From positions 1,907,001 through 1,971,000 of the forward strand of contig NC_018870.1 of assembly GCF_000305935.1 (NCBI RefSeq): DNA of 64,000 nt, in the 5' to 3' direction. Positions 60,196 to 64,000 of the stretch are shown in pieces; position 1 is the stretch's first letter, and each line of letters starts with the position of its first letter. The notes under the pieces were generated by a model that saw only the letters and a program-made list of their open reading frames with translations, was not told the DNA's origin and made no database searches. The translations under genes and the position numbers were made by a program. The DNA is from Thermacetogenium phaeum DSM 12270 (GTDB lineage Bacteria > Bacillota > DSM-12270 > Thermacetogeniales > Thermacetogeniaceae).

Positions 60196-60510
60196 CTATT
60201 TTGCTGTTCTGTCATGATATACAAGCAGAGTAATTGCATTTAAAATGATGGTAACGATGAGAAGAACTGCTGCGACGAACGCCACATTATCCGTTATGTC
60301 CATAAGAGCAGACCAATCCGCAATCTTAACCAAATGATAGTTGTAGAAAATCTGGAAACACAGCGAAATAGCACAAGCACTGATGCTCAGAATGGAAAGA
60401 GCGACCCAATTCCTATGATCATGTTTTTTATGTCGCATAAGATTAACAACAGGAAGTATCCAAGCAATTAGGCCAAGCGCGAGGCTGCCAAGATTAAGTA
60501 AACCAATCAT
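60196..60510 (-). CDS. Small four-helix membrane protein
   Basis: 104 residues from ATG 60510 (GAGGAG six bases upstream). Membrane segments LLNLGSLALGLIAWILPVVNL, WVALSILSISACAISLCFQ and VAFVAAVLLIVTIILNAITLLVY. A KKHDHRNW loop is conserved-looking. Some databases call similar proteins cytochrome-c-oxidase-subunit-4-like, which I would not trust. Its upstream region is occupied by the IS110 element. Confidence 0.65.
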   Translation of the reverse strand: MIGLLNLGSLALGLIAWILPVVNLMRHKKHDHRNWVALSILSISACAISLCFQIFYNYHLVKIADWSALMDITDNVAFVAAVLLIVTIILNAITLLVYHDRTAK

Positions 60511-60704
60511 GACATACTCCTCGTAAGATAGTTTTTGTAACACCAATTGATCCAGCCCTTAAAAGAAGCCCGGCTTGGATCAAAAATGCTCCTTGACAAC
60601 TGGAAATTGGGTATTCACTTTTGGCGGTGTTCCAGGCAAAATGTAGTCGTGAGATTATGTTCTGGGTAGGTGTTGTCCTCCTTGAGGTCCGACCTCTTAG
60701 AAAG

Positions 60705-60860
60705 CCTGACCCCCAGCCCATAACCTGTACCCCTGACACGTAAGTTGCGCAACTTGTCAAGATCCTGTCCAATGGTAGCAGGTTGGATAGAACAAGGTCC
60801 TGACAGGAAAGCGTTGTTTCCGGCGAGGCTGTTGACCGGTTATGGTGCCTGGGACCCCGC
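60705..60860 (+). ncRNA. Candidate IS110 bridge RNA
   Basis: Within the non-coding left end, CCCAG and CCATAACC (60712-60716, 60718-60725) pair with GGTTATGG and CTGGG (60838-60845, 60849-60853), closing a domain of about 110 nt. Inside is a perfect palindrome AAGTTGCGCAACTT (60742-60755), directly followed by TGTCAAGATCC (60755-60765), an 11-nt exact match to the element's right end at 62144-62154. This is what a donor-binding loop of a bridge RNA should contain. Confidence 0.55.
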
Positions 60861-60900
60861 ATAATCTTGCACAATTCCTCCTTGGGAGGGGGTGAAACTG

Positions 60901-62124
60901 ATGAAACTGTTTGTCGGTATCGATGTCAGCATGAAAGATTTCAAGGCCCGGATGTTCGACGCCGAGGGCGAGGAGATCGCCAAGCGCATTCGCTGCAAGA
61001 ACGACGATCCGGGTGCAGAGTCCTTTGTTAAGTACCTGGTGGAGATCTGCGGCGCCAACGAAGTTGATTCCCTGCGGATCGGCATGGAGTCCACCTCTGT
61101 CTATGGCTGGCACCTGCAGATGCGCCTGGCCGGTGAGCCTTTGCTGGCTTCCTTCCACCCCCAGGTGTACGTCTTCAATCCCAAGGTGATCGCCAACTTC
61201 AGAAAACAGTACGTCGATATTCCAAAGGATGACTGGTTCGACTGCCTGGTGATCGCCGACCGGCTAAGGTTCGGGCGGCTGCCCGAGAGCTGCCAGGTGG
61301 ACTTCCGCTACCTGCCCCTCCAGCGGCTGACCAGGTTCCGTTACCACCTGATCCAGACCATCACTCGGGAGAAGAACTACTTCCTGACCAACCTGTTCCT
61401 GAAGTTCAATACCATCTGCCAGGACAAGGTGCTGAGCGACATCTTCGGGGCCACCTCGGAGGCGATCCTGACCGAGTTCCTTTCTCCGGAAGAGATTGCG
61501 GCACGACCGCTTGATGAGTTAATTGATTTCCTGATGGAGAAGGGAAAGAGTCATTTCTCCAACCCCGAAGCTACGGCCAAGGCCTTAAAGCATGCCGCAG
61601 CCTGCGCTTACAGGCTGCACGGAAGCCTCCTGGAGCCGGTGAACCTGATCCTGGCCACCAGTTTGCAGACCATCCGCACCCTGGAACAGCAGGTCAAGAG
61701 TATTGACAGGGCTATTGAGAAAGAACTGTCACACTTTCCGAACACTTTGCAGTCGATACCGGGCATGGGGCCTGTCTGTACCGCCGGAATAATCGCCGAG
61801 ATCGGCGACATCCACCGGTTCGACAACGAGAAGGCAGTCGCCAAGTTTGCCGGCCTCACCTGGCGGAAACACCAGTCAGGCGAGTTTGAAGCCGATGACA
61901 CGCCGCTTACGAAAACCGGCAATGTGTACCTGCGCTATTACTTTGTGATGGCCGCCGACAGCGTGCGTAAATGGGACCCCAGGTTTGCCGAGTTCTATGC
62001 CCGTAAGTTTAAAGAAAGTACTACTCACCACTATCGCCGTGCTTTGGTTCTTACCGCACGTAAACTCGTGCGGGTGGTTGATGCTCTGCTACGCAGCAAC
62101 CAACTATACGTGCCCCAAGAGTAG
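60901..62124 (+). CDS. IS110-family DEDD transposase/recombinase
   Basis: 407 residues from ATG 60901 (GGGAGGGGG upstream). RuvC-like start LFVGIDVSMKDF (D), GMESTS (E), KDDWFDCLVIADRLRFG (D, D). The Tnp domain has LQSIPGMGPVCTAGIIAEIGD and the late HQSGEFEADDTPLTKTGN with the proposed catalytic Ser. No frameshift seen, so the element may be active. Confidence 0.95.
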   Translation: MKLFVGIDVSMKDFKARMFDAEGEEIAKRIRCKNDDPGAESFVKYLVEICGANEVDSLRIGMESTSVYGWHLQMRLAGEPLLASFHPQVYVFNPKVIANFRKQYVDIPKDDWFDCLVIADRLRFGRLPESCQVDFRYLPLQRLTRFRYHLIQTITREKNYFLTNLFLKFNTICQDKVLSDIFGATSEAILTEFLSPEEIAARPLDELIDFLMEKGKSHFSNPEATAKALKHAAACAYRLHGSLLEPVNLILATSLQTIRTLEQQVKSIDRAIEKELSHFPNTLQSIPGMGPVCTAGIIAEIGDIHRFDNEKAVAKFAGLTWRKHQSGEFEADDTPLTKTGNVYLRYYFVMAADSVRKWDPRFAEFYARKFKESTTHHYRRALVLTARKLVRVVDALLRSNQLYVPQE

Positions 62125-62360
62125 AGAAAGCCTTACGGTAATATGTCAAGATCCAAGGGGCAAAATTTCTAAGAAAATTTTCTAATAAAGCGCATACCAA
62201 ACTAAGCTTGTTTCCAGAGGTAAATGGAAAAAAGCAATATAAATGGATTATTGGTTGAAAGACAATAGCCAGGTGGTGATATGCATGCTGCTCCACGCAC
62301 TGTAGCGTCTTATCCGTTGTGGTCTTTCGGGATAAACCCTACTGGACGGTCGATATGGTA

Positions 62361-62747
62361 TTATGAAGCCGTTGCTATTAGTAGAAGAGCCACCCGACAG
62401 ACTAACCCTAAACCACCTCGTATTTCCGTCTGCCGGCAGCGCCTTAACCCGCACTCTGTAGTCCGGATGATTTTTATACACAATTCAGAAAAACAGCTTA
62501 GACGGGTCAATGCATTTCCATCTTCATCTTCGGTCAGGCTGGCTACACCTACACTCTCGGCAAAGTTATCTTGAAAATCCTGCAGAAAATCGAGGTCGAT
62601 AAGGTCAAGCAATTTCACGGTACTCTTCCCCACCATCCGTTCAGCCCCCCCTGAACCAAAACGGTTAATATTACCCACCGTGAATCTGAACCTCTGATAT
62701 CGGATTTCTACGATAATTTGTAGGTTAGTAACAATTTTATCAATCAT
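62361..62747 (-). CDS. Truncated PocR-domain sensory protein
   Basis: 128 codons. [26 protein letters not shown] and the later [26 protein letters not shown] are the PocR ligand-binding domain (one line each here shortened in meaning: DxLQxxQDxFA and FCxxI...C). Only the first two-thirds remain; family-like sequence ends near residue 110 and the rest is unrelated. It overlaps the sigma-54 regulator stop by 4 bp (ATGA). The loss of the 3' part may be tied to the IS110 insertion close by. Confidence 0.65.
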
Positions 62748-64000
62748 TTGTTTATGTTTATATTATAGATCTTCATCTTCCTGTAAATGGTGTTGCGGGA
62801 GACCCCCAGCTCCCTGGCAACTCGGCTGATGTTGCCCCCATGTTTGGACAGCAGTTCCAGGATCCTCCTGCGCTCCCTCTCGGCCTGCATCCTTTTCCTC
62901 TTCTCCCTCTCCTCCTCTATTCTTGCCACCTGCACAAATGAAGACGCCTCGCAGCTTTCCGAATGCCACGGCCTGTAAATTTCTTCAGGAAGGTATTCCG
63001 CCGTGATCCGACTCCCCTCCGCTATGCTCACCATCCTCTCCACCACATTCTGCAGCTCCCGAACATTCCCCGGCCAGTGGTACCGCTTCAGATGCTCCAC
63101 TACCTCCGGGTCTACGCCATCAAAACTCTTCCCCCATTCCCTGCTGATCCTCTCCAAAAAGTGTTTGAACAGTATCGGTATATCTTCAGGACGCTCCCGA
63201 AGCGGAGGAATATTAATCGTGATTACGTTCACCCGGTAGTAAAGATCTCGCCGAAAGTTCCCCTTCTCCACTTCACCCAGAAGATTCTTATTGGTGGCAC
63301 AGATAACCCGCACATCTACCGGAATCACCTTATCACCACCAAGACGGGTGAGCCTCCTCTCCTGCAATACCCGCAGCAGGGCTACCTGTTGCTCCAGCGG
63401 CATCTCCCCAATCTCATCCAGAAAAAGTGTACCCCCCGACGCCAGCTCAAATTTGCCGGGCCTACCCCCTCGCTTCGCTCCGGTAAATGCCCCTCCCTCG
63501 TATCCAAACAGCTCGCTGGCAATCAGCTCCCTCGGTATAGCCCCGCAGTTTACCGCCACAAAGGGACCCTTCCTGCGAGGACTGCGATTGTGAATGGCCT
63601 GCGCAAAAAGCTCCTTCCCCGTGCCGCTCTCCCCCTGCAGCAGTACGGTGGACATGCTCGATGCCGCCAATGACGCCATCCTGATCGCTTCCCGAATCCC
63701 CGCACTTTCCCCAATTATGTCCCTGAAACGAAATGTGGCCTGCGCCCCACTGAAACGGTTAACCAGCTTCTGCACCCGCTCAATCGGACGGAGGAGTATC
63801 ACGCCGCCCGTAAAGACACCTTGGTCATCTAAAATCGGCTTGCCTGATACCAAACAATGGATCAGCCCGTCTACGGAATCCACCATTACCTCCACTTCGT
63901 TAAAGGTATCACGACCAACGAGTAGCTTATCTATAAAATGAACACGGTTTCCCAGAATATCCCTCACCGGCTTACCTACCAAATCCCGACTTTTCCTACC
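62744..64000 (-). CDS. Sigma-54-dependent transcriptional activator (5' truncated by window edge)
   Basis: The frame is open to the right edge, so the N-terminus is outside. Visible: part of a PAS-type sensory domain ([19 protein letters not shown]), the AAA+ core with Walker A GESGTGKE, the sigma-54 contact loop GAFTGA, Walker [13 protein letters not shown] and the R-finger region. It ends with a Fis-type HTH ([19 protein letters not shown]). It activates RNA polymerase with sigma-54; its signal and target are unknown. Confidence 0.94.

What the first reader, a model, noticed from the sequence alone, without database searches (positions are those of the whole stretch)
60705..62154. IS110 element with a visible bridge RNA and donor match
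The left non-coding end folds into a closed domain (60712-60853), has a perfect 14-bp palindrome, and an 11-nt exact match to the right end of the element. Known: IS110 recombinases use a bridge RNA with loops complementary to target and donor DNA. The transposase is intact, so this may be an active programmable recombinase of a thermophile-like host.
Basis: partly seen in the sequence, partly recalled or inferred. Interest (0 to 1): 0.6.

Follow-up and report, generated by a model that had tools for sequence, protein, structure and literature searches.

The report
Transposon guided to ribosome-binding sites
A small mobile DNA element from a heat-loving bacterium carries a guide RNA whose targeting part resembles the ribosome's own mRNA-finding tail, so it inserts just ahead of genes at their ribosome-binding sites; the copy in this window has one end flipped, apparently by its own enzyme.

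Summary
The finding is real, but its borders and its "donor match" need correction. The window holds one of 8 near-identical IS110 elements in a genome whose size equals that published for Thermacetogenium phaeum. Core to core it spans 60520-62418, not 60705-62154. The left non-coding end encodes an IS621-type bridge RNA. Guides LTG, RTG, LDG, RDG and a handshake position all covary with targets or element ends across about 95 related copies. The 11-nt "donor match" is instead the -35 region of a promoter formed only in the excised circle; it is not conserved. An empty site fixes a 2-bp CT core, as in IS621. All evidence is comparative; nothing was assayed.

The parts
60520..62418 (+). Whole IS110 element, core to core, as it stands in the window (right end inverted)
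   Evidence: Comparison of 8 copies and one empty site
60511..60519 (+). Left target flank (LT, GACATACTC); its reverse complement is part of the Shine-Dalgarno GAGGAG ahead of the ATG of ORF 60196-60510 (minus strand)
60520..60521 (+). Left core dinucleotide CT
   Evidence: Empty-site comparison for copy c2440 gives a 2-bp core
60524..60529 (+). -10 box TAAGAT in LE; pairs with the -35 in RE (17-bp spacing) only in the excised circle
   Evidence: no such promoter in the inserted form
60531..60862 (+). Probable extent of the bridge RNA, ends approximate (5' part, target loop, donor domain)
   Evidence: fold z -3.56, 0 of 100 shuffles; conserved in relatives; the transcript itself is inferred
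60664..60712 (+). Target-binding loop: outer stem 60664-60670/60705-60712, hairpin 60684-60688/60692-60696
   Evidence: covariation on 20 sequences; hairpin 97.5% of cells paired
60676..60682 (+). Left target guide LTG (TCCTCCT, last CT = core)
   Evidence: permutation test 0 of 10000
60699..60704 (+). Right target guide RTG (AGAAAG, complementary to CTTTCT); 60705-60706 CC = handshake guide for RE ..GG
60712..60853 (+).
60739..60744 (+). Left donor guide LDG (CGTAAG = RE ..CGTAAGG-CT)
   Evidence: permutation test 0 of 10000
60824..60827 (+). Right donor guide RDG (CGAG, complementary to CT-CG of LE)
60892..62124 (+). IS110 recombinase ORF, 410 aa; DEDD/Ser residues D11, E66, D114, D117, S329
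62129..62418 (-). Right end (RE), inverted relative to the other 7 copies; terminus with -35 TTGACA at 62144-62149 (minus strand), cores at 62129-62130 and 62417-62418

Best explanation
This is an IS110-group insertion sequence of the IS621 mechanism. Inferred life cycle: the recombinase excises the element at CT cores; the circle joins RE (-35 TTGACA) to LE (-10), creating a promoter that transcribes a bridge RNA from LE. In the donor loop, LDG (CGTAAG) and RDG (CGAG) recognise the circle junction. In the target loop, LTG (UCCUCCU) and RTG (AGAAAG) recognise the target CCTC-CT-TT, the complement of a Shine-Dalgarno sequence. The recombinase exchanges strands at CT, so the element enters just upstream of a gene, antisense to it, and leaves AGGAGG in front of the start codon. 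Shown by comparison: borders, 2-bp core, guide covariation, ribosome-binding-site context. Inferred: transcription, RNP, catalysis. In the window copy RE was then inverted, most likely by the same enzyme using a target-like site at the end of its own ORF (AACCAC-CT-TTCT, minus strand).
For: 8 copies and one empty site (another IS110's ribosome-binding site, intact in two copies of that element and interrupted in the third) give core CT and ends. LDG vs RE: 175 of 240 positions match in 30 unique pairs, permuted mean 114.5, sd 5.2, 0 of 10000. LTG vs target: 254 of 360 in 60 unique pairs, permuted 189, sd 10, 0 of 10000; RTG vs target: 132 of 244 in 61 pairs, permuted 98, sd 8.9, 0 of 10000. 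RDG vs LE: CGAG/CTCG 73, CAAG/CTTG 5, AAAG/CTTG 1, of 79. Handshake nucleotide vs RE -1: 78 of 83. Copy c1213 has a changed LTG (TCACTCCT) and sits at the matching target TTCACTC-CT, 6 of 6 positions at -6 to -1. Ribosome-binding-site context: 54 of 70 sites, against 690 of 6800 random positions and 37 of 72 other AGGAGG. PDB relatives are IS621 and ISCro4. Inversion: only W of 96 copies has the inverted RE; the internal breakpoint ties among the best 6-7 of 232-241 CT sites for guide match in the five copies scored.
Against: No RNA or recombination was measured. Rfam finds nothing, and the automatic consensus folds recover only parts of the structure; the target-loop outer stem is paired in only 62% of cells. 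My regular expressions for LE and RE presuppose CT-[CT]G-TA and TTGA, so the promoter count (74 of 75) and the RDG count are partly selected. c2514, c1992 and c1213 fail the start-codon test. The window copy's own target matches the guide poorly (4 of 6). The PocR gene right of the element stops mid-domain exactly at the junction (profile 1-59 of 162) and its missing half was not found, so the right flank may have been rearranged further and the original right target is unknown.
Confidence: 0.9

Rival explanations
1. One reading: the 11-nt repeat TGTCAAGATCC is the bridge RNA's donor guide and marks the right end at 62154.
For: Exact 11-nt match between the LE RNA region and RE in all 8 copies.
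Against: It lies 13 nt or more from the RE core, is absent from relatives, coincides with the -35 box, and a better donor guide next to the core covaries with RE. The true end is elsewhere.
Confidence: 0.03
2. Shine-Dalgarno targeting is a by-product: insertions at ribosome-binding sites are only the survivors, because insertions inside genes are harmful.
For: Other AGGAGG sites in the same flanks also often precede ORFs (37 of 72), so context follows partly from the motif. Selection certainly acts.
Against: The guide itself encodes the complement of the motif in nearly all members, and guide variants sit at matching variants.
Confidence: 0.07
3. The inverted right end of the window copy arose without the recombinase, by illegitimate recombination or recombination between two copies, not by RNA-guided inversion.
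For: A single case; W's RE is more diverged (93.4-95.5% to the others) than its LE+ORF (97.7-98.9%); the PocR gene beside it is truncated.
Against: Both breakpoints coincide with CT, one of them exactly at the RE core and the other among the best guide-matching CT sites of the element.
Confidence: 0.25
4. The element is of the IS1111 group, with the RNA in RE.
For: RE is unusually long here (about 290 bp).
Against: Guides and covariation lie in LE; no long subterminal inverted repeat was seen (the 18-nt pair involves the inverted RE).
Confidence: 0.02

Closest known systems
IS621 (IS110 group; Durrant et al. 2024, PMC11208160; Hiraizumi et al. 2024, PMC11208158)
   Same: DEDD plus Ser recombinase, LE bridge RNA with target loop before donor loop, guide polarity, CT core, promoter split over RE-LE, handshake guide
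   Different: Targets the Shine-Dalgarno instead of REP; longer LE (about 370 bp) and RE; probably a longer RNA than IS621's 177 nt; larger donor arm between LDG and RDG; recombinase sequence similarity detected mainly in the C-terminal domain
seekRNA elements of IS1111/IS110 (Siddiquee et al. 2024, PMC11187229)
   Same: RNA-guided target choice, natural retargeting by guide change, like c1213 here
   Different: In IS1111 the RNA lies in RE and subterminal inverted repeats are present
Piv-type DNA invertases
   Same: Related recombinases that invert DNA; the window copy shows a natural inversion with IS110-type sites
   Different: Piv is a dedicated inversion switch (recalled; mentioned in passages); here it looks like an accident of a transposition system

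Membership tests
IS110 family, IS110 group (IS621 type) | DEDD_Tnp_IS110 and Transposase_20 domains with D-E-D-D and Ser residues | tested here: met
   IS621 residues D11, E60, D102, D105, S241 from passages
IS110 family, IS110 group (IS621 type) | Short core shared by target and ends, scarless insertion | tested here: met
   2-bp CT from an empty site
IS110 family, IS110 group (IS621 type) | Bridge RNA in LE with target loop then donor loop, guides covarying with targets and donor | tested here: met
IS110 family, IS110 group (IS621 type) | Sigma-70-like promoter reconstituted across RE-LE | tested here: met
   TTGACA-17-TAAGAT; 74 of 75 copies with both ends found, partly selected by the search pattern
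IS110 family, IS110 group (IS621 type) | LE longer than RE | tested here: met
   LE about 372 bp (60520-60891), RE about 290 bp
IS110 family, IS110 group (IS621 type) | RNA expressed, bound by the recombinase and needed for recombination | not testable with these tools
   needs RNA-seq and biochemistry
IS1111 group | Subterminal inverted repeats of 7-17 bp and RNA in RE | tested here: not met
   guides lie in LE; ends read TTGACATATTACCGTAAGG-CT and CT-CGTAAGATAG without such repeats
Rfam RNA family | Match to a curated family | tested here: not met
   no match up to E=1

The most novel reading that the evidence does not exclude
A large, mainly Bacillota clade of IS110 elements has fixed a bridge RNA whose target loop imitates the anti-Shine-Dalgarno tail of 16S rRNA (CCUCCU in LTG, the following UU read through RTG). 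Almost every gene start thereby becomes an address, and the site is re-made in front of the gene after insertion. Guide drift follows ribosome-binding-site variants (TCCTC, CACTC, TCCCC, CCCTC, TCTC). The window copy is a natural record of RNA-guided self-inversion.
Probability: 0.7. Interest if true: 0.72.

Novelty: new variant of a known kind. Interest (0 to 1): 0.6.

Why it matters
IS110 elements are known to have many targets; a target class that is universal, functional and conserved over a whole clade would be a distinct survival strategy: land just before genes, spare the coding sequence, keep the ribosome-binding site. It offers natural, thermophilic bridge recombinases with a short, very common target, natural guide-target pairs (including one retargeted copy within a single genome), and a natural case in which the system seems to have inverted part of itself. 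It also warns that IS110 borders called by eye or by ORF can be wrong by hundreds of bases.

Tried and rejected
The 11-nt repeat as donor guide: rejected. An IS1111-type RNA in RE: rejected. A known Rfam RNA: none. Near matches on plasmids: none. Inverted RE in other copies: W has it; one pattern match in L159 lies downstream of an intact RE and is judged chance. Exact match of the target to the 16S rRNA 3' end in this genome: TCACCTCCTTTCT occurs 0 times exactly and 15 times with one mismatch; none of the 8 sites printed was recognised as rDNA, so the rDNA itself was not examined. The 16S tail sequence is recalled. The missing half of the PocR gene: not found. The automatic consensus folds give only short helices; I used a hand-drawn target-loop structure instead. 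I did not build a covariance model or predict a protein structure. Literature: the searches listed no paper whose listing describes Shine-Dalgarno targeting by IS110; the library lacks most subscription papers, and I read no supplementary tables. Papers: PMC11208160 abstract, sections 5, 6, 12 and passages; PMC11208158 passages; PMC11187229 section 13 and passages; PMC3551663 outline with abstract; PMC6352166 passages; PMC13174815 passages (not an IS110 case).

Rows dropped: of 96 copies, 2 lacked upstream DNA. The LDG test used 30 unique pairs from rows with an RE and an ungapped LDG. The target test kept 73 of 94 rows; the 21 dropped are listed. The ribosome-binding-site test used 70 of 79 rows with an LE; the 9 others had short or masked flanks. 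The permutations do not correct for relatedness; targets are host DNA and not inherited with the element, LDG and RE are inherited together.

Full report
What was checked. The ORF at 60892-62124 is an intact IS110 recombinase whose solved relatives are IS621 and ISCro4. The RNA domain 60712-60853 folds far better than shuffled sequence, the palindrome is perfect (60742-60755), and the 11-nt match is exact. So the raw observation stands. The element borders and the meaning of the 11-nt match do not.

Borders and core. The genome has 2,939,057 bases in one contig, the exact size published for Thermacetogenium phaeum (abstract). It holds 8 copies of this element, 97.7-100% identical over LE+ORF. 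Copy c2440 lies in the ribosome-binding site of a second kind of IS110 element whose two other copies are uninterrupted: empty CTAA-AG-GAGGATC, filled CTAA-AG-CCTTACGG...CTTACG-AG-GAGGATC. The shared core is therefore exactly AG, or CT in element orientation. In the window the element runs from core 60520 to core 62418.

The RNA. Its hairpin pairs in 97.5% of cells with compensatory changes. The outer stem is weaker (62%). Reading the guides as in IS621: LDG matches the last bases of RE in 175 of 240 positions over 30 unique pairs, none of 10000 permutations as high. LTG and RTG match the host DNA flanking each insertion, 254 of 360 and 132 of 244, again 0 of 10000. RDG and LE change together (73 CGAG/CTCG, 5 CAAG/CTTG, 1 AAAG/CTTG). 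The nucleotide after RTG pairs with RE -1 in 78 of 83 rows, the position of IS621's handshake guide. Targets are host DNA, so kinship of the elements cannot by itself create the target matches. One copy in this same genome, c1213, carries a changed LTG and sits at a correspondingly changed target.

The 11-nt match. GGATCTTGACA in RE contains TTGACA, which in the circle stands 17 bp before TAAGAT of LE. The same arrangement is present in 74 of 75 copies for which both ends were found, although my search pattern favours it. No promoter-like site is found across the element end in the inserted form. The matching stretch inside the RNA is private to this element. It is therefore not the donor guide.

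Where it goes. LTG ends in UCCUCCU or a close variant in nearly all of the 92 copies whose target loop could be aligned. Of 70 distinct insertion sites with readable flank, 54 have a start codon 9-19 nt beyond the core opening an ORF, with the Shine-Dalgarno in the right place (43 with ATG). Random positions in the same flanks give 690 of 6800, other AGGAGG occurrences 37 of 72. After insertion the gene keeps AGGAGG before its start codon. Against a strict rule: c2514 and c1992 of this genome are at AGGAGG without a start codon in range, c1213 failed the strict test, and a few relatives have other targets (L097, L099, L128, L129).

The window copy. Only here, among 96 copies, is RE inverted. 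Both new junctions keep CT: RE-CT now continues into TTCTC at the end of the ORF, and AACCAC-CT now meets the right flank. The internal site matches the guides in 7 of 10 positions, tied among the best 6-7 of 232-241 CT sites in the five copies scored. Durrant et al. showed programmed inversion by IS621 when donor and target lie in opposite orientation (passages), so self-inversion is the simplest account; I give it about 0.75. As a result the -35 box faces the ORF and a normal circle cannot form, so this copy is probably immobile. Its RE has drifted further (93.4-95.5% to the others) than its LE+ORF. A complication: the gene to the right, with a PocR domain, ends mid-domain at the junction and its other half was not found, so a deletion or second rearrangement may have followed.

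Known or new. Mechanistically it passes every feature of the IS110 group that could be tested by sequence. The target class and its conservation over a clade appear undescribed in the searches I ran, which is weak evidence given the library. I file it as a new variant of a known kind.

Noticed in passing
Relatives at about 65% identity in G055 have CRISPR-repeat halves at every junction read (left side in L193 and L204, right side in L193, L204, L207; L209 lies beside such repeats). Its LE contains ATAGGT and TTCAGCG, matching the repeat: possibly an IS110 clade whose guide is aimed at CRISPR repeats.
   Followed up: partly
PMC6352166: The Thermus IS1000 (IS110 family) 5' end is reported to be identical to a 32-bp CRISPR repeat; this might be a mis-set IS border of another CRISPR-repeat-targeting element.
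   Followed up: no
L171, L172, L174-L177 (G000:C1 near 972.4k, 1037.0k, 1784.4k, 2618.7k, 2893.5k, 652.7k): Six copies of another repeat ending ..AAAAATACCTACTGGATCTTGACATGGAC then unique DNA; looks like the end of a further mobile element and shares the 11-mer GGATCTTGACA.
   Followed up: partly
L023 / G000:C1 about 2438-2446 kb: Nested insertions: a copy of the window element in the ribosome-binding site of the second IS110, which itself sits in a CRISPR array.
   Followed up: partly
62419-62747 (minus strand): PocR sensory domain truncated exactly at the element junction, next to a sigma-54 activator gene (62744-63982); the missing half was not found in the genome.
   Followed up: partly
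60873-60896: The recombinase's own ribosome-binding site lies in TTCCTCCTTGGGAGGGGGTG, able to form a CCUCC/GGAGG hairpin that would hide it and itself resembling a target.
   Followed up: no
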